A DNA stretch of 64,000 bases from Sphingomonas sp. 8AM (GTDB lineage Bacteria; Pseudomonadota; Alphaproteobacteria; Sphingomonadales; Sphingomonadaceae): contig NZ_LR733844.1 of NCBI RefSeq assembly GCF_902506455.1, forward strand, positions 2,871,303 through 2,935,302. Direction: 5' to 3'. The position numbers and the translations under genes are program-made. Under the pieces are notes generated by a model. That model saw only the letters and a list, made by a program, of their open reading frames with translations, was not told the origin of the DNA and made no database searches. Shown here piece by piece: positions 1 to 8,459 of the stretch; the stretch's first letter is position 1; every line of letters starts with the position of its first letter.

Positions 1-836
1 ACGCGCCCGACGATCGCGTTGAAGTTCGCACCGTCGCAATAGACGTACCCGCCCGCCGCATGGACCGCGTCGCTGATCTCCTTGAGATCACGCTCGAACA
101 AGCCGCAGGTGTTCGGATTGGTGATCATCACCGCTGCGACGTCCGGTCCAAGCCGCGCCTTGAGCGCGGCGGTGTCGACGCGGCCGTCGGCGGTGGCGGG
201 GATGTCCTCGACCGAGAAGCCCGCGAACGCCGCGGTCGCCGGGTTGGTGCCGTGTGCGCTTTCTGGCACCAGCACGACCTTGCGATGGCCCTCGCCGCGC
301 TTCTCCAGCGCCGCCTTGATGCACAGGATGCCGCACAGCTCGCCATGCGCGCCCGCCTTGGGGCTCATCGCGACGCCGTACATGCCGGTCAGCTTGATGA
401 GCCACACGGCCAGTTCGTTGATGACGCCCAGCGCGCCCTGCACGGTATCGACCGGCTGGAGCGGGTGGATGTCCGCGAAGCCGGGCATCCGCGCGACCTT
501 CTCGTTCAGGCGCGGGTTGTGCTTCATCGTGCACGAACCGAGCGGGAACAGCCCGAGGTCGATCGCATAATTCTGGCGGCTGAGGCGGGTGTAGTGGCGC
601 ACCGTCTCCTGCTCCGACAGGCCGGGCAGCCCGATCGCGCTCTTGCGGGTCAGATCGCCGAGGCGCGAGCCAGCGACATCGCCGTCCGCGAAGTCGACGC
701 CGGTCGTCCCGGTCGAGCCGATCTCGAAGATCAAAGGCTCTTCGAGCATCAGCGCCTTGTTGCCGGTGAAGGTCGGCGCGGCGTTGCCACCCGCGACCGG
801 CGTGGTCGGCTTCCAGCCGCTTGCATTGATGCTCAT
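1..836 (-). CDS. gcvPB: Glycine dehydrogenase (decarboxylating) subunit 2, N-terminal part; 3' end beyond window
   Basis: This is the second half of the P-protein of the glycine cleavage system, which with subunit 1 decarboxylates glycine using pyridoxal phosphate and passes the aminomethyl group to lipoyl-H protein. About 278 residues are visible, starting [16 protein letters not shown]. The family stretch [18 protein letters not shown] is present, as is a conserved PLP-fold region ending in ANFNAIVG at the window edge. The PLP-binding lysine lies further on, outside the window. The ATG at 836 overlaps the gcvPA stop in an ATGA, so the two subunits are probably translationally coupled. Recognition is by family sequence; the C-terminal half cannot be judged. 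Confidence 0.93.
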
Positions 837-2191
837 GCCAGTGCCTCCTGAAGCGCAGTCGCCAGCGCCTCGATATCCTCTCCGGTTGCCGTTTCGGTGA
901 CGGCGACGATCAGCCCGTTTTCGAGCGCACCCTCGCCCGGATACAGCCGCCCGAGCGAAACGCCCGCGAGCACGCCCTTGTCGGCGAGATCGCGAACGAT
1001 CGGCCGCGCCTCCTTGCCGATGTCGAGCGTGAACTCGTTGAAGAAGGTGTCGTTGACGACCTTGACGCCCGGCACCTTCGCCAGCCGGTCGGCCGCACGG
1101 CACGCACCCGCGTGGTTGAGCGCTGCCAAGCGCCGCAGCCCCGCCTCGCCCAGCAACGTCATGTGGATCGAGAAGGCCAGCGCGCACAGCCCGGAATTGG
1201 TGCAGATGTTGCTGGTCGCCTTCTCACGGCGGATATGCTGCTCGCGCGTCGACAGCGTCAGCACGAAGCCGCGTCGGCCCTCGGCATCGACGGTCTGCCC
1301 GCACAGCCGGCCCGGCATCTGGCGGACGTACTTTTCCTTGCAGCCAAACAGCCCGACATACGGTCCGCCGAACTGGAGTCCGACGCCGAGCGACTGGCCC
1401 TCGCCCACGACGATATCCGCGTCCATCTCACCGGGCGAGCGCAGCGCGCCGAGCGCGACCGGCTCGGTGACGACCGCGATCAGCAACGCCTTCTTCGCGT
1501 GGCAGGCGTCGGCGAGCGGGGTCAGATCGGCGATGCGGCCGAGGATGTCGGGGTATTGGACGACGACGCACGAGGTATCGTCGTCGATCCTGGCGATCAG
1601 CGCGTCGAGATCGGTGTCGGCGGTCAGCGTCGGCAGCGCGGTGTCGAGCACGTCGCCGGTATATTTCGCCATTGTCTTCGCGACCGAGACGTAATGCGGG
1701 TGCAGCCCGCCCGACAGGATCGCCTTGCAGCGCCGGGTGATGCGCCGCGCCATTCCGATCGCTTCCCAGCACGCGGTCGAGCCGTCGTACATGCTGGCGT
1801 TCGCGACGTCGGTGCCGAGCAAGGCGGCGACCTGCGTCTGGAACTCGAACAGCATCTGGAGCGTGCCCTGCGCGATCTCCGGCTGATAGGGCGTATAGGC
1901 GGTCAGGAACTCGCCGCGCTGGATCAGGTGATCGACGCTGGCGGGAACGTGGTGACGATACGCCCCGGCTCCCAGGAAGAACGGCACCTCGCCCGCGACG
2001 GTGTTCCGGCGCGCGAGTGCGGCCATGTGGCGCTCGACCGCCAGCTCGCTGGCATGGTCGGGCAGATCGTGGATCGGGCCATCGAGCCGCGCGGCTTCTG
2101 GCACGTCGGCGAACAGATCGTCGATCGACGATGCGCCGATCACGGCCAGCATGTCCTGGCGGTCGGTGGGGGTCAGGGGCAGGTAGCGCAT
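833..2191 (-). CDS. gcvPA: Glycine dehydrogenase (decarboxylating) subunit 1
   Basis: First half of the split P-protein (about 452 residues, the usual size). It forms the heterotetrameric glycine decarboxylase with GcvPB. Family signatures are the N-terminal [15 protein letters not shown], the [11 protein letters not shown] stretch, and [13 protein letters not shown]. The start chosen is the ATG at 2191, with GGAGGAG a few bases upstream; a TTG one codon earlier is less likely. The start codon and ribosome site lie inside a 47-bp perfect inverted repeat, and directly upstream is a truncated IS5-type transposase instead of the gcvT-gcvH genes often found there in relatives. The reading frame itself is intact. 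Whether it is expressed depends on that odd upstream junction. Confidence 0.95.
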
Positions 2192-2261
2192 CAAGTGCTC
2201 CTCCCCTCCCTTTCAAGGGAGGGGAGGAGCACTTGATGCGCTACCTGCCCCTGACCCCCAC
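2166..2261. repeat. Perfect 47-bp inverted repeat (fold-back) over the gcvPA start
   Basis: Bases 2166-2212 are repeated in perfect reverse complement at 2215-2261, with only 2 bases between. The left arm is native: it holds the first gcvPA codons, the ATG at 2191 and its GGAGGAG ribosome site. The right arm is an inverted copy of the same bases and abuts transposase sequence. The core resembles the short CCCCTCCC/GGGAGGGG repeats seen elsewhere in the window (for example around 21032-21129), so a pre-existing hairpin may have seeded the fold-back. Such palindromes can also be library or assembly artefacts. Confidence 0.95.
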
Positions 2262-2415
2262 ACCAGTGCGCTCCCGAACGCAGCACCCACAAACATCCGT
2301 TCACGAACAAGCGGTTATCGAAGCCCGTCCGGCCCGGGTCAGCTGTCTTGCCCGGAACCAGCGATGCAATCCGCGACCATTGCGCCTCACTCAACTCGTA
2401 CCGCTTAATCCCCAT
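2262..2415 (-). pseudogene. Truncated IS5-family transposase, N-terminal fragment only
   Basis: Reading from the ATG at 2415 on the minus strand gives about 51 residues beginning MGIKRYELSEAQWSRIA and running to CLWVLRSGAHWC. This is the recognisable N-terminal DUF4096-like part of IS5-group transposases. At about 2262 the similarity stops and the frame runs into the inverted copy of the gcvPA 5' end, so the DDE catalytic domain is absent. The fused frame continues to a stop at 2191-2193. An upstream GTG codon gives the same frame. The fragment is non-functional. Its left terminus probably lies near 2465, where sequence like the AAGGCTGATTCA ends of such elements appears on the minus strand. 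Confidence 0.85.
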
Positions 2416-2465
2416 CACTCGCTCCGAGCCTCGACACGGATGCCTATGAATCAGCCTTCACGGCG
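2262..2465 (-). mobile_element. IS5-group insertion sequence remnant (one end plus transposase start)
   Basis: The remnant comprises the short leader and the first third of an IS5-group transposase. The outer end is inferred near 2455-2465 from the terminal-like GAAGGCTGATTCAT on the minus strand; no flanking target duplication can be checked because the other end is missing. It lies between divergent gcvPA and the AST operon and is joined to the gcvPA fold-back at 2261/2262. The remaining bases up to 2568 (the leader of the M20 hydrolase gene) hold no other gene that I can see. Confidence 0.7.
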
Positions 2466-2568
2466 TTTGGGAATCCTGAATGTCGATCCGGCCTAGGGCG
2501 ATCCGGTCTCACGCAACAGTGACAAGGCCCGTGTTCCGTTTCGGTGATCGTGCCGCTACGGTACCGGA

Positions 2569-3771
2569 ATGAACAAACTTTCGCCCGCCGAACGGGCATC
2601 TCTGGAGAGGATCGACGCCGGCGCAATGCTGGCACGGGTCGAGCGCTGGGCCGCGATCAACAGCGGGACGCGCAACGTCGCCGGCTGCCTAGCGATGGCG
2701 AGAGAACTCGCCGATGCGTTCGCCGCGCTGCCGGGTACGGTGGAGCTGGTGGAGCCGACCGCGACCGACAGTGTCGCCGCGGACGGACGCGTCGAGCCAC
2801 TGGCACATGGGCCGCATCTGCGGGTGTCAGTGCGTCCCGCGGCGTCGGTTCGGCTGCTGCTGACCGGGCATATGGACACCGTCTATCCCGCAGGTCACGC
2901 TTTCCAGTCCTTGCAGTGGCGCGAGCCCGGCGTGCTCAACGGCCCGGGTGTCGCGGACATGAAAGGGGGGCTGTCGCTGATGCTCGAAGCCCTGCTGGCG
3001 ATCGAAGCGGGTGGTTCGCAGCTCGGCTATGACGTCATCATCAACTCCGACGAGGAAACCGGGTCGTTGTCGTCCGCCGCACTATTGGCGGAAGCGGCGC
3101 GGGGCAAGGTCGCGGCCCTGACCTATGAGCCGGCCCTGCCGGACGGCACGCTGGCCGGCGCACGTGGCGGGACGGGCAATTTCTCGATCGTCGTTCGCGG
3201 TCGCGCCGCCCATGCCGGGCGCAATCCCGAGGACGGACGAAACGCGATCGTCGCGGCCAGCGCGCTGGCGGTGCGGCTGCATGCGGAGCGCTCGCCCCGA
3301 CTGGCGGTCAATCCCGCCCGGATCGAGGGCGGCGGCCCCAACAATGTCGTGCCCGATCTGGCGGTGCTCCGCGTCAACTTCCGCCCGGCCGATGACGCCG
3401 AGATCACGCGCGCGCAAACCGCAATCGATGCCGCGGTCGCCGCGGTGCAGGCGGCACATGACGTGTCGATCGCGGTGCATGGCAGCTTCAACCGCCCGCC
3501 CAAGCCGATCGACGCGGGCGCGGCGCGGTTGTTCGAGCTGGTGCGCAGCGCGGGTGCCGATCTGGGGCAGCCGATTGCGTGGCGCGACACCGGGGGCGTC
3601 TGTGACGGCAACAACATCGCGGCATGCGGCGTGCCGGTGGTCGACACGATGGGCGCGCGGGGCGGCGCGATCCACTCGAACGACGAATTCCTGATCGTCG
3701 ACAGCCTGGCCGAGCGGGCCGCGCTGTCGGCAGTGACAATGCTGCGACTGGCCGAAGGAGCGCTGGCATGA
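2569..3771 (+). CDS. M20-family metallohydrolase of the AST operon (possible desuccinylase)
   Basis: A 400-residue zinc hydrolase of the M20 peptidase/deacylase superfamily (glutamate carboxypeptidase, ArgE/DapE type). The metal-site blocks are visible: TGHMDTVYP (about residues 103-111), GPGVADMKGG (about 125-134), the catalytic-type NSDEETGS (about 163-170), and a C-terminal MGARGGAIHSNDEF stretch. The dimerisation domain around residues 200-310 carries GRAAHAGRNPEDGRNA. Its stop overlaps the astA start (ATGA), so it is the first gene of an astA-astB operon. No AstE is seen here. By position it may hydrolyse N-succinylglutamate or a related acyl amino acid, but that is inference; the sequence alone supports only an M20 amidohydrolase. 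Confidence 0.9.
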   Translation: MNKLSPAERASLERIDAGAMLARVERWAAINSGTRNVAGCLAMARELADAFAALPGTVELVEPTATDSVAADGRVEPLAHGPHLRVSVRPAASVRLLLTGHMDTVYPAGHAFQSLQWREPGVLNGPGVADMKGGLSLMLEALLAIEAGGSQLGYDVIINSDEETGSLSSAALLAEAARGKVAALTYEPALPDGTLAGARGGTGNFSIVVRGRAAHAGRNPEDGRNAIVAASALAVRLHAERSPRLAVNPARIEGGGPNNVVPDLAVLRVNFRPADDAEITRAQTAIDAAVAAVQAAHDVSIAVHGSFNRPPKPIDAGAARLFELVRSAGADLGQPIAWRDTGGVCDGNNIAACGVPVVDTMGARGGAIHSNDEFLIVDSLAERAALSAVTMLRLAEGALA

Positions 3772-4784
3772 CGTTCGTGATCCGCGCCGCCGACGCGCAC
3801 GATCTGGCGCATCTGTACGAGATGGCGAAGCTGACCGGCGGCGGTTTCACCAACCTGCCCCCGGATCGCAATGCGCTGACCGCGAAGCTCGAGCGGAGCG
3901 CGCTGGCGTTCGGGCATGACGATACGTCGATGTCCGACGAGCTGTTCGTGCTGATGCTGGAGAACAACGTCACCGGCGACGTGCGCGGGACGGGCCAGTT
4001 GTTCACGCATGTCGGGCAGAAACATCCCTTCTACAGCTATCGGCTGGGGACGCTGGCCCAGCACAGCCGCGAATTGTCGCGGACGTTCCGGGCCGAGATG
4101 CTGTCGCTGACCACCGATCTGGAAGGGGCGAGCGAGGTCGGCGGGCTGTTCCTCCACCCCGGCGAGCGCGCGGGCGGCCTCGGATTGCTGCTGGCGCGGA
4201 GCCGGTACCTGTTCATCCGCACGCATCGTCCGCGCTTCGCCGACCGGACGCTCGCCGAACTGCGCGGCGTGATCGACGAGGCGGGCGGGTCGCCGTTCTG
4301 GGACGGGCTGGCCGGGCGGTTCTTCGGGATGGGCTTCCAGGAGGCCGATGAATTCAATGCCGTGCACGGGCACCAGTTCATCGCCGACCTGATGCCCAAG
4401 CATCCGATCTACACCGCGATGCTCTCCGACCATGCGCGTGCCTCGATCGGGCTGCCGCATCCCTCCGGCCGCGCCGCGATGCGGATGCTGGAAAATGAAG
4501 GGTTTGCGTACGAGAATTACATCGACATCTTCGACGGCGGCCCGACGATGACGGTCAAGACCGACCAGATCCGCACCGTTCGCGATGCGCAGGATGCGGC
4601 CGTCGTGGCGGTGCGCGAGGGTGGCACCGAGGAAGCGCTCGTGGCTACCGGGCGGCTGGCGGCGTTCCGCTGCGCCTATGCCCGGATCGGGACGGTCGAC
4701 GGGGGTGTGACGCTGGACCCCGCTGCGGCGACGGCGCTACGGCTGCGCGAGGGCGACCGCGTGAGCTGGATCGGACGGATATGA
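3768..4784 (+). CDS. astA: Arginine N-succinyltransferase
   Basis: This enzyme catalyses the first step of the arginine succinyltransferase pathway, moving succinyl from succinyl-CoA to the alpha-amino group of arginine. The product is 338 residues, the usual AstA length. Family stretches include MTFVIRAADAHDLAHL at the N-terminus, KTGGG-like LTGGGFTNLP (about residues 18-27), EVGGLFLHP, GLGLLLARSRYLF, and HPIYTAMLSDHARASIG. The start at 3768 gives an ATGA overlap with the hydrolase stop, and the stop at 4784 overlaps astB in the same way, which indicates coupled translation of the three enzymes. Confidence 0.96.
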   Translation: MTFVIRAADAHDLAHLYEMAKLTGGGFTNLPPDRNALTAKLERSALAFGHDDTSMSDELFVLMLENNVTGDVRGTGQLFTHVGQKHPFYSYRLGTLAQHSRELSRTFRAEMLSLTTDLEGASEVGGLFLHPGERAGGLGLLLARSRYLFIRTHRPRFADRTLAELRGVIDEAGGSPFWDGLAGRFFGMGFQEADEFNAVHGHQFIADLMPKHPIYTAMLSDHARASIGLPHPSGRAAMRMLENEGFAYENYIDIFDGGPTMTVKTDQIRTVRDAQDAAVVAVREGGTEEALVATGRLAAFRCAYARIGTVDGGVTLDPAAATALRLREGDRVSWIGRI

Positions 4785-6034
4785 TACGCGAGATCAACTT
4801 CGACGGGATCGTCGGCCCCAGCCACAATTATGCCGGGCTCAGCCCCGGCAATCTCGCCGCCACCGCCAATGCCGGACAGGTTGCGCATCCGCGCGCGGCG
4901 GCGTTGCAGGGGGTGGCGAAGATGCGCGCCAATCTCGCGCTCGGGCTGGTGCAGGGCGTGCTGATCCCCCCGCCCCGCCCCGACCACGACTGGCTGGCGC
5001 GGCTGGCGATCGATTACGATGCAGCGCCGGCGCACCTGAAGGCGCAGGCGTTGTCCGCCTCCTCGATGTGGGCCGCCAATGCCGCGACCGTTTCTCCCGC
5101 GCTCGATACCGCGGACGGTCGCTGCCACCTGACCGTCGCCAATCTGGTGACGATGCCGCATCGCAGCCATGAGTGGCGCGCGACGCTGGCGCAGTTGCAG
5201 CTCGCCTTCGCCGACGCCGCGCATTTCGTCGTGCAGCCGCCGGTGCCGCCGCCGTTCGGTGACGAGGGCGCGGCGAACCACATGCGGCTGTGTGCCGCGC
5301 ATGATGCGCCGGGTGTCGGGGTGTTCGTCTACGGCGTGGCGGGCGGCGCGTTTCCGGCGCGGCAGCATGTCGAGGCCAGCCGTGCGATCGCGCGGCATCA
5401 TGGGCTCGACCCGGCGCGGACGCTGTTCGTTCAGCAATCGGTCGAGGCGATCGCCGCTGGCGCTTTCCACAACGACGTGGTCGCGGTCGCCAACGAGCGC
5501 ATCCTGCTGGCGCACGAACAGGCGTTTGCGGACCGTGACGGCTTCTACGCCGACCTTCGCCGCTTGCTGCCCGAGGTCGAGATCGTCGAGGTGCCGGCGG
5601 CGGAGGTGAGCCTGACCGACGCGATCGGCTCCTACCTCTTCAACGCGCAACTCGTCACCCCGCCCGACGCCGTACCGACGCTGATCGTGCCCGAGGAAGC
5701 ACGCGCCAACCCGCGCGTGTGGCAATGGATCGAGGCGCATCTGGCGGGCAACGGGCCGATCCGGCGCATCGAGGTGGTGGACGTTCGCGAGTCGATGGCC
5801 AATGGCGGCGGGCCGGCGTGCCTGCGCCTGCGCGTCGTCTGCGATCCCGCGACGGTCGATCCGCGTTTCCTGGTCGACGAACAACGGCTCGACCGGATCG
5901 CGGCGGTGATCGAACGGCATTGGCCCGAGGCGATCGCGCCGGACGATCTTGGCGACGGCGCCTTGCTGGAGCGGATCGCCGCCGCCCGCGCGTCGCTCGT
6001 CGAGGAATTGGGCCTGCCGGAGTTACAGGGATGA
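4781..6034 (+). CDS. astB: N-succinylarginine dihydrolase
   Basis: Second step of the AST pathway: it converts N2-succinylarginine to N2-succinylornithine, two ammonia and CO2. The 417-residue product begins with the typical EINFDGIVGPSHNYAG. It carries the amidinotransferase-fold motifs MPHRSHEWR, FVYGVAGG, and the histidine/cysteine active-site regions AFHNDVVAVAN (about residues 228-238) and NGGGPACLRLRVV (about 342-354). It sits between astA and a small membrane protein with ATGA overlaps on both sides. Confidence 0.96.
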   Translation: MIREINFDGIVGPSHNYAGLSPGNLAATANAGQVAHPRAAALQGVAKMRANLALGLVQGVLIPPPRPDHDWLARLAIDYDAAPAHLKAQALSASSMWAANAATVSPALDTADGRCHLTVANLVTMPHRSHEWRATLAQLQLAFADAAHFVVQPPVPPPFGDEGAANHMRLCAAHDAPGVGVFVYGVAGGAFPARQHVEASRAIARHHGLDPARTLFVQQSVEAIAAGAFHNDVVAVANERILLAHEQAFADRDGFYADLRRLLPEVEIVEVPAAEVSLTDAIGSYLFNAQLVTPPDAVPTLIVPEEARANPRVWQWIEAHLAGNGPIRRIEVVDVRESMANGGGPACLRLRVVCDPATVDPRFLVDEQRLDRIAAVIERHWPEAIAPDDLGDGALLERIAAARASLVEELGLPELQG

Positions 6035-6270
6035 CCGCGCGGTTGCAGCGCTGGTGGCGCGGGTTCGCGCGACTGTTCGTCGTCAAGACGAAGTTCGAGG
6101 CGTTCATGCTGATCTACGCGATCGCCACCGGCGCGGTCGAACGGGGGATGACCTATCTGCATCGCTTCCCCGGCACGTCGGGCTGGATCATGTTCGGCGC
6201 CTGCACGATCGTCGTGTTCATGGCCGGTGGCAAGATCATCGACGGCGTGGAGCGTGACGCCAACACCTGA
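6031..6270 (+). CDS. Small membrane protein at the end of the AST operon, function unknown
   Basis: A 79-residue protein that starts in an ATGA overlap with the astB stop. The first 20 residues are basic and aromatic (MTARLQRWWRGFARLFVV). Two hydrophobic stretches follow, at about residues 24-41 (FEAFMLIYAIATGAVERG) and 50-70 (GWIMFGACTIVVFMAGGK), so it is probably an inner-membrane protein. I do not recognise a named family. Its coupled position suggests a link to arginine catabolism or simply read-through expression. Confidence 0.75.
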   Translation: MTARLQRWWRGFARLFVVKTKFEAFMLIYAIATGAVERGMTYLHRFPGTSGWIMFGACTIVVFMAGGKIIDGVERDANT

Positions 6271-6284
6271 GCGGATCGGCTATT

Positions 6285-6302
6285 GATATGTTGTAACATG
6301 CC
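6285..6302. promoter_or_regulatory. Candidate Zur-type operator upstream of a ZnuD-like receptor gene
   Basis: The sequence GATATGTTGTAACATGCC contains a near-perfect palindrome ATGTT-GT-AACAT centred at 6293/6294, about 40 bases before the receptor start. It resembles the AT-rich GTTAT/ATAAC Zur boxes described in alphaproteobacteria. The neighbouring gene encodes a zinc-receptor-like protein, which fits zinc repression. The assignment is by resemblance only. Confidence 0.5.
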
Positions 6303-6332
6303 GCTAATGGGAGACCCATAAGGGAGTCGCCC

Positions 6333-8459
6333 ATGAAGACCATGTTGTTTGCCGCGGTCGCGCTTGCACCGCTCACCCTGCCCGCCGCCGCCCAGACCGC
6401 CGACCCGGCGCGACAGTCCGACCCGCATCGCTCGGACGAGGTGATCGTCACCGCGCCGATCCAGACGAGCGAGACCGATGTGCTGCAGGGCACGTCGGTG
6501 CTGACCGGCGCGAACCTGACCCGCGAGCTTCGCCCGACGATCGGCGAAACCCTCGCGCGGCTGCCGGGCGTGTCGGCGACCTCGTTCGGGCCGAACGCGT
6601 CGCGGCCGATCCTGCGTGGTTTTCAGGGCGACCGTATCCGGGTGCTGACCGACGGGATTGGCTCGATCGACGTGTCGAATACGTCTGTCGATCATGCGGT
6701 GGTGATCGATCCGCTGCTCGCCGAGCGCGTTGAGGTGCTGCGCGGGCCGGCGGCGCTGCTGTATGGGTCGTCGGCGGTGGGCGGTGTGGTCAATGTCGTC
6801 GACCGGCGGATTCCGCGCGCGCTGCCGCAGAACGGCTACCGCGCCGATGCGATCGGCACCTATGGCAGTGCGGCAAACGAGCGCTCGATCGGCGGCGCGG
6901 CGGACGTCACCGCTGCTGGACCACTCGTGCTGCACGTCGACGGATCGTACCTGAAGGCGGACGATCTGCGCACCGGCGGGTTCATCCTGTCCCGCGCCGC
7001 GCGCCGCGCCTCGCTGGCGCTGGCAGGCGCGCCGCAGAACGGCGACGAGCCGATCGACTTTGCGGCGAACGCGGCGCTGAGCGGCAAGCTGCCCAACAGC
7101 GGGGCGGAGACGTGGACCGCTGGCGCGGGTGCATCGATCATCACCGATGGCGGGATGCTGGGCGTCTCCTATGGCCATTACGACAGCCTGTATGGCGTCC
7201 CGGTCCGCTATGCGACCGCACTGGGGCAAGAGCAGGAGGCGCCGCGGCTCGACGTGGTGCAGAACCGCTATGATTTGCGCGCCGAGGTGACGCCGCACGG
7301 CTCGCTGATCGATACCATCCGCATCCGCGCCGCTCACGCCAATTACCGGCATTTCGAGCTGGAGGAAGACGGTTCGATTGGCACCGCCTTCTACAACAAG
7401 GGGCTGGAGGGACGGCTCGAGCTGGTGCAGGCCAAGCGCGGGGCGTGGCAGGGTGCCAGCGGCGTGCAATATTTCAGCCGCGCCTTCGACGTGGTCGGCG
7501 ACGAGGCATTCCTTCCGCGTAACCAGACCGAGCAGACTGGGCTCTTCACGCTCCAGCAATATGAGGACGGCCGGTTCAAGGCGGAGGGCGGGCTACGCTA
7601 CGAACGGACCCGGCTCACCGCCGATCCCGGCTTCCGCGAAGGGACCGAGCGGTTCACCGGCGCGGATCGCAGCTTCGGGACATGGTCGGGGTCGCTGGGC
7701 GCGGCCTACACGCTGGCGGACGGTGTGCGGGTCGGGTTGAACGGATCGCGTACCGCGCGCGCACCGTCCGCAGAGGAGTTGTTCGCCAACGGGCCGCACG
7801 CTGGGACGCAGGCGTATGAGCTGGGGAACCCCAACTTTCGTGCGGAAACGTCATGGGGTCTGGAGGCGACACTTCACGCGCACAATCAGATCTTCAGCCT
7901 TGATGCGTCGGCCTATTACAACTGGTTCGACAATTACATCTATGAGTCGCAGGTCGCCGGAGCGGCGTGCGTAACCGCGGCGCAGGGCGAGGTCGACTTG
8001 CCGTGCTTCCGATACGATCAGGCGAAGGCGCGCTACTACGGCTTCGAAGCGGATGCCTCGGCGCGGCTGGCGACGATTGGCACGCATGTCATCACCGCCG
8101 ATCTGCTCGGCGATTACGTCCATGCCGAGGTGGTGGATCGCGGTCCGGTGCCGCGCATCCCGCCGCTGCGACTGCTCGGCGGGATCGAGGCGCGCAGCGA
8201 CACCAGCGCCGCGCGCGTCGAGGTCGAGCGCGCCTTCGCGCAGAACCGCACCGCGCCCTTCGAGACACGGACCGACGGCTATACGATGGTCAATGCCTCG
8301 CTGTCGTTCCATCCGTGGGGCGGCAGCGACCGGCGCAGCATCCTGCTGGCCGCGAATAACATCTTCGATGTCGAGGCGCGGCGCGCCGCGAGCGTGCTGA
8401 AGGATTTCGCGCCGCTGGCCGGGCGAGACGTGCGGGTGACGTTCCGCGTGGGTATCTAG
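6333..8459 (+). CDS. TonB-dependent receptor, ZnuD-like (probable zinc uptake)
   Basis: A 708-residue outer-membrane receptor. It has a signal peptide (MKTMLFAAVALAPLTLPAAA), a plug domain from about residue 35 (SDEVIVTAPI, then IGETLARLPGVSATSFGPNAS and the VEVLRGPAALLYGSSAVGG block), and a beta barrel ending in a C-terminal VRVTFRVGI. The plug text RPILRGFQGDRIRVLTDG, the DHAVVIDPLLAERVEVLRGP block, and the barrel text FRYDQAKARYYGFEAD resemble the ZnuD family of zinc/heme receptors. Two cysteines (in AACVTAA and LPCFRYD) flank an extracellular loop as in that family. A Zur-like palindrome upstream supports zinc. GGGAG-type ribosome sites precede the ATG. Substrate is inferred. Confidence 0.85.
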   Translation: MKTMLFAAVALAPLTLPAAAQTADPARQSDPHRSDEVIVTAPIQTSETDVLQGTSVLTGANLTRELRPTIGETLARLPGVSATSFGPNASRPILRGFQGDRIRVLTDGIGSIDVSNTSVDHAVVIDPLLAERVEVLRGPAALLYGSSAVGGVVNVVDRRIPRALPQNGYRADAIGTYGSAANERSIGGAADVTAAGPLVLHVDGSYLKADDLRTGGFILSRAARRASLALAGAPQNGDEPIDFAANAALSGKLPNSGAETWTAGAGASIITDGGMLGVSYGHYDSLYGVPVRYATALGQEQEAPRLDVVQNRYDLRAEVTPHGSLIDTIRIRAAHANYRHFELEEDGSIGTAFYNKGLEGRLELVQAKRGAWQGASGVQYFSRAFDVVGDEAFLPRNQTEQTGLFTLQQYEDGRFKAEGGLRYERTRLTADPGFREGTERFTGADRSFGTWSGSLGAAYTLADGVRVGLNGSRTARAPSAEELFANGPHAGTQAYELGNPNFRAETSWGLEATLHAHNQIFSLDASAYYNWFDNYIYESQVAGAACVTAAQGEVDLPCFRYDQAKARYYGFEADASARLATIGTHVITADLLGDYVHAEVVDRGPVPRIPPLRLLGGIEARSDTSAARVEVERAFAQNRTAPFETRTDGYTMVNASLSFHPWGGSDRRSILLAANNIFDVEARRAASVLKDFAPLAGRDVRVTFRVGI

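What the first reader, a model, noticed from the sequence alone, without database searches (positions are those of the whole stretch)
2569..3771. M20 hydrolase coupled to astA-astB as a candidate non-AstE desuccinylase
The AST pathway ends with removal of succinate from N-succinylglutamate, usually by AstE. This operon carries an M20 amidohydrolase, translationally coupled to astA, and no AstE. M20 enzymes cleave similar acyl amino acids, so it could be a replacement.
Basis: partly seen in the sequence, partly recalled or inferred. Interest (0 to 1): 0.55.

Follow-up and report, generated by a model that had tools for sequence, protein, structure and literature searches.

The report
Alternative final enzyme of arginine breakdown
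A gene that databases call only 'hydrolase' sits directly before two arginine-degradation genes and, in the genomes sampled, occurs only where the pathway's first enzyme occurs and never together with the usual last enzyme (AstE), so it very probably does AstE's job in many alphaproteobacteria.

Summary
ORF 2569-3771 (+) is an M20 metallohydrolase (NCBIfam NF005602/PRK07338, named only 'hydrolase'); its stop overlaps the astA start by 4 bases, and astA overlaps astB likewise. The window's genome has astA, astB and astD but no AstE. In 347 evenly drawn genomes of the phylum, AstA occurs in 123; PRK07338 over cut-off in 39, all AstA+; AstE in 83, 82 of them AstA+. No genome has both; 2 of 123 AstA+ genomes have neither. 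In 290 genomes of the class, all 11 PRK07338 genomes are among the 14 AstA+ ones, and no AstE passes its cut-off. PRK07338 lies directly upstream of astA in 38 of 42 loci, and three clusters read astC-M20-astA-astD-astB. Outside the class, the three AstA+ genomes without AstE are exactly the three with PRK07338. The family is one clade (100/99), keeps the M20 catalytic residues, and has invariant basic residues (R218, K312) absent from 19 paralogues. Most likely it hydrolyses N-succinyl-L-glutamate to glutamate and succinate, replacing AstE. No earlier report appeared in the papers searched; priority is not settled.

The parts
2569..3771 (+). M20 metallohydrolase, family NF005602/PRK07338; proposed N-succinyl-L-glutamate desuccinylase replacing AstE
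   Evidence: co-occurrence; model pLDDT 94.2
3768..4784 (+). astA, arginine N-succinyltransferase (338 aa, ATG at 3768 overlapping the M20 stop)
   Evidence: PF04958 417 bits; TIGR03243 350.6 bits over cut-off
4781..6034 (+). astB, N-succinylarginine dihydrolase (417 aa, start overlapping the astA stop)
   Evidence: PF04996 560 bits; NF009789 521 bits over cut-off

Best explanation
The gene encodes a cytoplasmic di-zinc M20 amidohydrolase that does the last step of the arginine succinyltransferase (AST) pathway: N-succinyl-L-glutamate + water -> L-glutamate + succinate. It is a non-orthologous replacement of AstE. Likely working order (AST chemistry recalled): AstA succinylates arginine; AstB releases ammonia and CO2 to give succinylornithine; a transaminase (ArgD-type here, a gene inside the ast cluster in some relatives) and AstD give succinylglutamate; the M20 enzyme removes succinate. 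Shown here: gene, operon-like overlap, no AstE found, AstD present, exclusivity with AstE in the sample, conservation of the M20 catalytic residues. Inferred: the substrate, the ArgD step, zinc binding, cytoplasmic location, co-transcription.
For: Phylum sample of 347 genomes (tallied in 46): AstA 123; PRK07338 over cut-off 39, all AstA+, 0 of 224 AstA- genomes; AstE (E <= 1e-8) 83, of which 82 AstA+; both 0; AstA+ with neither 2. Outside the window's class, 82 of 85 AstA+ genomes have AstE and no PRK07338 over cut-off, and exactly the 3 without AstE (G426, G495, G585) have PRK07338 (1 in 98,770 if genomes were independent). Class sample of 290: PRK07338 11, all among the 14 AstA+; AstE over cut-off 0. 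Named controls: Caulobacter vibrioides has PRK07338 over cut-off, AstA, AstB and AstD, and no AstE match; E. coli has AstA and AstE over cut-off and no PRK07338 at E <= 1e-78. Position: within 250 bases upstream of astA in 38 of 42 loci; astD in 20 of 29 long neighbourhoods; clusters astC-M20-astA-astD-astB (L044, L047, L073) and astC-M20-astD-astB (L074). In 18 loci with astA from AstE+ genomes, no M20 hit. AstD in 17 of 17 PRK07338+ genomes of the window's family. H101, D103, D130, E162, E163, E187, H369 invariant in 28 aligned members; R218 and K312 in 130 of 130 rows (121 distinct sequences), 0 of 19 paralogues.
Against: No activity data. In the phylum sample 36 of 39 PRK07338 genomes are of the window's class and all 83 AstE genomes are outside it, so the exclusivity is largely taxonomic and the p-values overstate it; the AstA tree needs only 2 changes for the AstE label and 4 for the M20 label. 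Three AstA+ genomes have neither enzyme: G082 (which also has no AstD at E <= 1e-100), G227 and G087 (both with AstD and AstB), so a third solution may exist. Weak AstE-model matches (at most 61 bits, mostly partial) occur in 32 of 290 class genomes, three of them PRK07338+ (G181, G125, G188). Eight AstE+ genomes hold M20 relatives below the PRK07338 cut-off (265-285 bits). In the window's genome the operon itself holds neither astC nor astD. AstD also occurs in G402 (over cut-off) and G562 (below it), which lack AstA and PRK07338, so AstD presence is weak evidence. G264 has its PRK07338 gene away from its astA-astD-astB cluster. One AstE genome (G489) lacks AstA.
Confidence: 0.85

Rival explanations
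1. The M20 enzyme desuccinylates N2-succinylornithine (or succinylarginine), releasing free ornithine and short-cutting the AstC and AstD steps, as ArgE does with acetylornithine.
For: M20 relatives include ArgE; in the window's genome and most sphingomonad loci seen the operon is only M20-astA-astB, with astD elsewhere and, in the window's genome, no AstC over cut-off.
Against: astD lies with the M20 gene in 20 of 29 long neighbourhoods and is present in 17 of 17 PRK07338+ genomes of the window's family, which a shortcut would make needless; the profile is complementary to AstE; in G558 the cluster is M20-astA-astD and no AstB was found in the genome, against succinylarginine. Weakening this: AstD also persists in two family genomes without AstA or PRK07338.
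Confidence: 0.08
2. A broad N-acyl-amino-acid or folate-type glutamate carboxypeptidase (CPG2-like) that happens to be co-transcribed with astA and recycles acyl-glutamates in general.
For: Nearest solved structure is carboxypeptidase G2 (E 2e-27; VIA Z 44.6 at rmsd 3.9 over 380 residues, 26% identity); the next NCBIfam model is glutamate carboxypeptidase PRK06133 (178 bits, below its 349 cut-off).
Against: Strict co-occurrence with AstA (39 of 39 and 11 of 11 PRK07338+ genomes) is not expected of a general salvage enzyme; the family is a separate clade (100/99) with its own signature residues.
Confidence: 0.05
3. The genomes have an unrecognised AstE elsewhere (too divergent for the profiles) and the M20 gene does something else in arginine metabolism.
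For: 19 of the 83 AstE genomes score below the curated cut-off, so AstE does diverge; 32 of 290 class genomes have weak matches to the AstE model.
Against: Those 19 still score about 265-298 bits, whereas the best match in the class sample is 61 bits and most are partial; the window's genome has none at E <= 1e-3.
Confidence: 0.02

Closest known systems
AstE, succinylglutamate desuccinylase (TIGR03242; PF04952 hybrid domain)
   Same: Proposed reaction and place in the AST pathway; the gene sits in ast clusters as astE does in some AstE+ genomes.
   Different: Different protein family: neither AstE profile matches the window's genome. AstE belongs to the AstE/AspA zinc-carboxypeptidase-like fold (recalled), not M20.
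Carboxypeptidase G2 / PRK06133 glutamate carboxypeptidase (M20)
   Same: Same fold and the same metal-site motifs in the alignment; CPG2 releases glutamate from N-acyl-glutamates (recalled), chemically the same kind of cut.
   Different: 26% identity; below the PRK06133 cut-off; no signal peptide evident by eye (no predictor run); own signature R218, K312, C345, N349, T360, I368 against 19 paralogues.
DapE, N-succinyl-diaminopimelate desuccinylase (M20)
   Same: M20 enzyme that removes succinate from an amino group; Foldseek E 6e-25 with the product complex 5vo3.
   Different: About 20% identity; DapE models score 87 bits or less, far below their cut-offs; different genomic context.

Membership tests
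M20 metallopeptidase/amidohydrolase family | PF01546 catalytic and PF07687 dimerisation domains over gathering score | tested here: met
   79.3 bits (cut-off 24.6) and 62.1 (cut-off 21)
M20 metallopeptidase/amidohydrolase family | Metal ligands and catalytic Glu (H..D..D..EE..E..H pattern; roles recalled) | tested here: met
   H101, D103, D130, E162, E163, E187, H369 invariant in 28 members and conserved in at least 90% of 19 paralogues
NCBIfam NF005602 / PRK07338 'hydrolase' | Score over the curated 357-bit cut-off | tested here: met
   551 bits
AstE (TIGR03242) | Sequence membership in AstE/AspA family | tested here: not met
   No AstE or AspA model among the hits shown for the protein (best 25 of 35); no AstE match in the genome
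AstE (TIGR03242) | Hydrolysis of N-succinylglutamate | not testable with these tools
   Needs an enzyme assay
Glutamate carboxypeptidase (CPG2, PRK06133) | Score over PRK06133 cut-off | tested here: not met
   178.3 vs 349 bits
DapE / ArgE | Score over a DapE or ArgE equivalog cut-off | tested here: not met
   Best 86.8 vs 304.2 (TIGR01900) and 53.8 vs 297.7 (TIGR01892)

The most novel reading that the evidence does not exclude
The whole PRK07338 family is a second, evolutionarily unrelated succinylglutamate desuccinylase (an 'AstE2') that replaces AstE in AST-pathway Alphaproteobacteria, including Caulobacter and sphingomonads, and has spread to other classes. In at least one genome of another class (G495) it is paired with an AstA that groups, with moderate support, with the AstE-type.
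Probability: 0.82. Interest if true: 0.55.

Novelty: new variant of a known kind. Interest (0 to 1): 0.52.

Why it matters
It would close the last gap of the arginine succinyltransferase pathway in a large bacterial class, give a function to a conserved family that NCBIfam calls only 'hydrolase', and show that the last step of a textbook pathway is done by an unrelated enzyme. Metabolic reconstructions that look only for AstE would wrongly call arginine catabolism incomplete in these bacteria.

Tried and rejected
Considered and rejected: a hidden AstE in the window's genome; membership in DapE, ArgE or CPG2-type models; using AstD co-occurrence as proof of the substrate, because AstD is also in G402 and G562 without AstA or PRK07338. 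The idea that loci lacking astB nearby serve ornithine only was dropped for most: AstB is elsewhere in G478, G560, G595, G227 and G082, and was not found in G558.

Led nowhere: promoter and terminator scan of 2150-6400, nothing above chance; phage collection, one 30%-identity hit. Ten paper searches gave no paper holding 'PRK07338' and, in the listings seen (titles and starts of abstracts), none that assigns an M20 enzyme to succinylglutamate; some listings were capped (20 of 1,183, 12 of 15). The library lacks most subscription journals and all bioRxiv preprints, so priority is not settled. In PMC9007349 (passages from a term search) 'succinylglutamate', 'astE' and 'desuccinylase' do not occur in the main text; PMC11378808 (term search) has none of the six terms. 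Substrate docking was not possible: no model coordinates were among the files.

Sample notes: both samples were limited to genomes at least 95% complete. In one search eight genomes with matches below the cut-off (265-285 bits, all AstE+) were not counted as PRK07338. In one search AstE was counted at E <= 1e-8, which includes 19 genomes below the curated cut-off. The AstA tree used 54 rows: 26 from PRK07338 loci, 25 from 18 of the 82 AstA+ AstE+ genomes, 3 from genomes with neither. The 130 rows hold 121 distinct sequences. A2 for the model used 39 of the 80 genome contigs proteins plus the window's.

The three genomes outside the class are unnamed, so I no longer call them gammaproteobacterial.

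Full report
What is there. The ORF at 2569-3771 (+) is a 400-residue M20 protein that belongs to NCBIfam NF005602/PRK07338, an equivalog-type model whose only name is 'hydrolase' (551 bits, cut-off 357). The next model, PRK06133 glutamate carboxypeptidase, scores 178 bits against a cut-off of 349. The stop codon overlaps the astA start as ATGA at 3768-3771, and astA overlaps astB in the same way. In 80 of 80 loci from genome contigs (the best 80 of 589 confirmed; Sphingomonas, Sphingobium, Sphingopyxis, Novosphingobium, Erythrobacter and others; nearest Sphingomonas phyllosphaerae, 89% identity) astA follows directly, 69 of 80 with the 4-base overlap and the other 11 at -1 to +8 bases.

The rest of the pathway in this genome. 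AstD is present next to SelO, with no other ast gene near it (TIGR03240 625 bits, over cut-off). At E <= 1e-30 the AstC model finds two proteins: an ArgD-type one at 414 bits, below the cut-off of 610 and followed by what looks by eye like ornithine carbamoyltransferase, and a weaker one at 165 bits. That ArgD covers the AstC step is inference. AstE is absent by both profiles. So the pathway appears complete up to succinylglutamate and lacks a recognised last enzyme.

Co-occurrence. In 347 genomes drawn evenly from the phylum, AstA is in 123, PRK07338 over cut-off in 39 and AstE at E <= 1e-8 in 83. PRK07338 is in 39 of 123 AstA+ genomes and 0 of 224 AstA- genomes; AstE is in 82 AstA+ genomes and one AstA- genome (G489); no genome has both; 2 AstA+ genomes (G082, G227) have neither. 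Eight AstE+ genomes hold M20 relatives below the PRK07338 cut-off, at 265-285 bits. In 290 genomes of the window's class, PRK07338 is in 11, all among the 14 AstA+ genomes; AstE over cut-off is in 0 of 290, although 32 have weak matches of at most 61 bits, three of them PRK07338+ (G181, G125, G188); G082, G227 and G087 have AstA and neither enzyme. The score gap in that sample is wide: members score 552 bits or more, the next protein 255 bits. The named controls agree: Caulobacter vibrioides holds AstA, AstB, AstD and PRK07338 over cut-off without an AstE match; E. coli holds AstA and AstE and no PRK07338 at E <= 1e-78.

How independent is this? In the phylum sample 36 of 39 PRK07338 genomes are of the window's class and all 83 AstE genomes are outside it, so Fisher p-values (3e-20 and 5e-30) overstate the case. 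The useful test is outside the class: of 85 AstA+ genomes there, 82 have AstE, and the three without it (G426, G495, G585; unnamed) are exactly the three with PRK07338 (1 in 98,770 if independent). In the AstA tree G426 and G585 group with the M20-type AstA, so there the enzyme probably came with the operon; the AstA of G495 groups with the AstE-type (support 90/87) although its ast cluster is astC-M20-astD-astB.

Position. In 42 loci from 41 genomes, PRK07338 lies within 250 bases upstream of astA in 38. The exceptions are G459 (624 bases between), G495 and G432's second locus (both still inside ast clusters) and G264 (away from the cluster). Full clusters astC-M20-astA-astD-astB occur in G125, G188 and G426. 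In 18 loci with astA from AstE+ genomes there is no M20 hit. A Legionella adelaidensis plasmid record (Gammaproteobacteria) shows hydrolase-astA-astD-astB and a Sphingomonas parapaucimobilis record hydrolase-astA-astB; both use the bare name 'hydrolase'. Of five plasmid records with the protein, the other three have no listed gene under the match; whether the Legionella strain has AstE was not tested.

The protein. The AlphaFold2 model is confident (mean pLDDT 94.2, pTM 0.90) and closest to carboxypeptidase G2 (Foldseek E 8e-33; VIA Z 44.6, rmsd 3.9 A over 380 residues, 26% identity), then other M20 enzymes including DapE bound to its products. The M20 catalytic set H101, D103, D130, E162, E163, E187, H369 is invariant in 28 aligned members (roles recalled). 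Against 19 M20 paralogues, R218, K312, C345, T360 and I368 are found in 130 of 130 family rows (121 distinct sequences) and N349 in 129 of 130, each in 0 of 19 paralogues. Two extra invariant basic residues fit a substrate with three carboxylates, such as N-succinylglutamate, but this is a plausibility argument: no coordinates were at hand to place them in the pocket. Twenty-seven members form one clade against the paralogues (100/99).

Which substrate? Complementarity with AstE points to succinylglutamate. A shortcut at succinylornithine would make AstD needless, yet astD lies with the gene in 20 of 29 long neighbourhoods and is present in 17 of 17 PRK07338+ genomes of the window's family. 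Against leaning on AstD too hard, two genomes of that family keep an AstD match without AstA or PRK07338.

What it is not. By sequence it is not a member of AstE, DapE, ArgE or the CPG2-type model. It works like AstE by inference, and like CPG2 in chemistry by fold.

Verdict. A probable non-orthologous replacement of AstE: a new variant of a known kind. The inference is strong but purely genomic. I found no prior assignment in the searches listed under Tried and rejected, but public fitness data and most subscription literature were out of reach, so it may be known to specialists.

Noticed in passing
window 2166-2261: Perfect 47-nt inverted repeat (arms 2166-2212 and 2215-2261, 2 nt apart) that duplicates head to head the 5' end of the gene at 833-2194 (-), which looks like a glycine dehydrogenase subunit (by eye, no profile run), just upstream of the operon.
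   Followed up: partly
G087 (L041), G227 (L043): Genomes of the same class with AstA, AstB and AstD but neither AstE nor PRK07338 over cut-off; a third desuccinylase may exist.
   Followed up: partly
G082 (L048:8527-10800): AstA beside an ArgD-type transaminase in a genome with AstB elsewhere but no AstD (E <= 1e-100), AstE or PRK07338; AstA may serve another purpose there.
   Followed up: partly
L078 (G432:C5) and L077 (G432:C1): One genome of the window's family carries two PRK07338 genes, three AstA and three AstD matches: a window-type operon and a second cluster with M20, astC, astD, astB, astA.
   Followed up: no
G489 (L090): AstE beside an AstC-like transaminase in a genome without an AstA match.
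   Followed up: no
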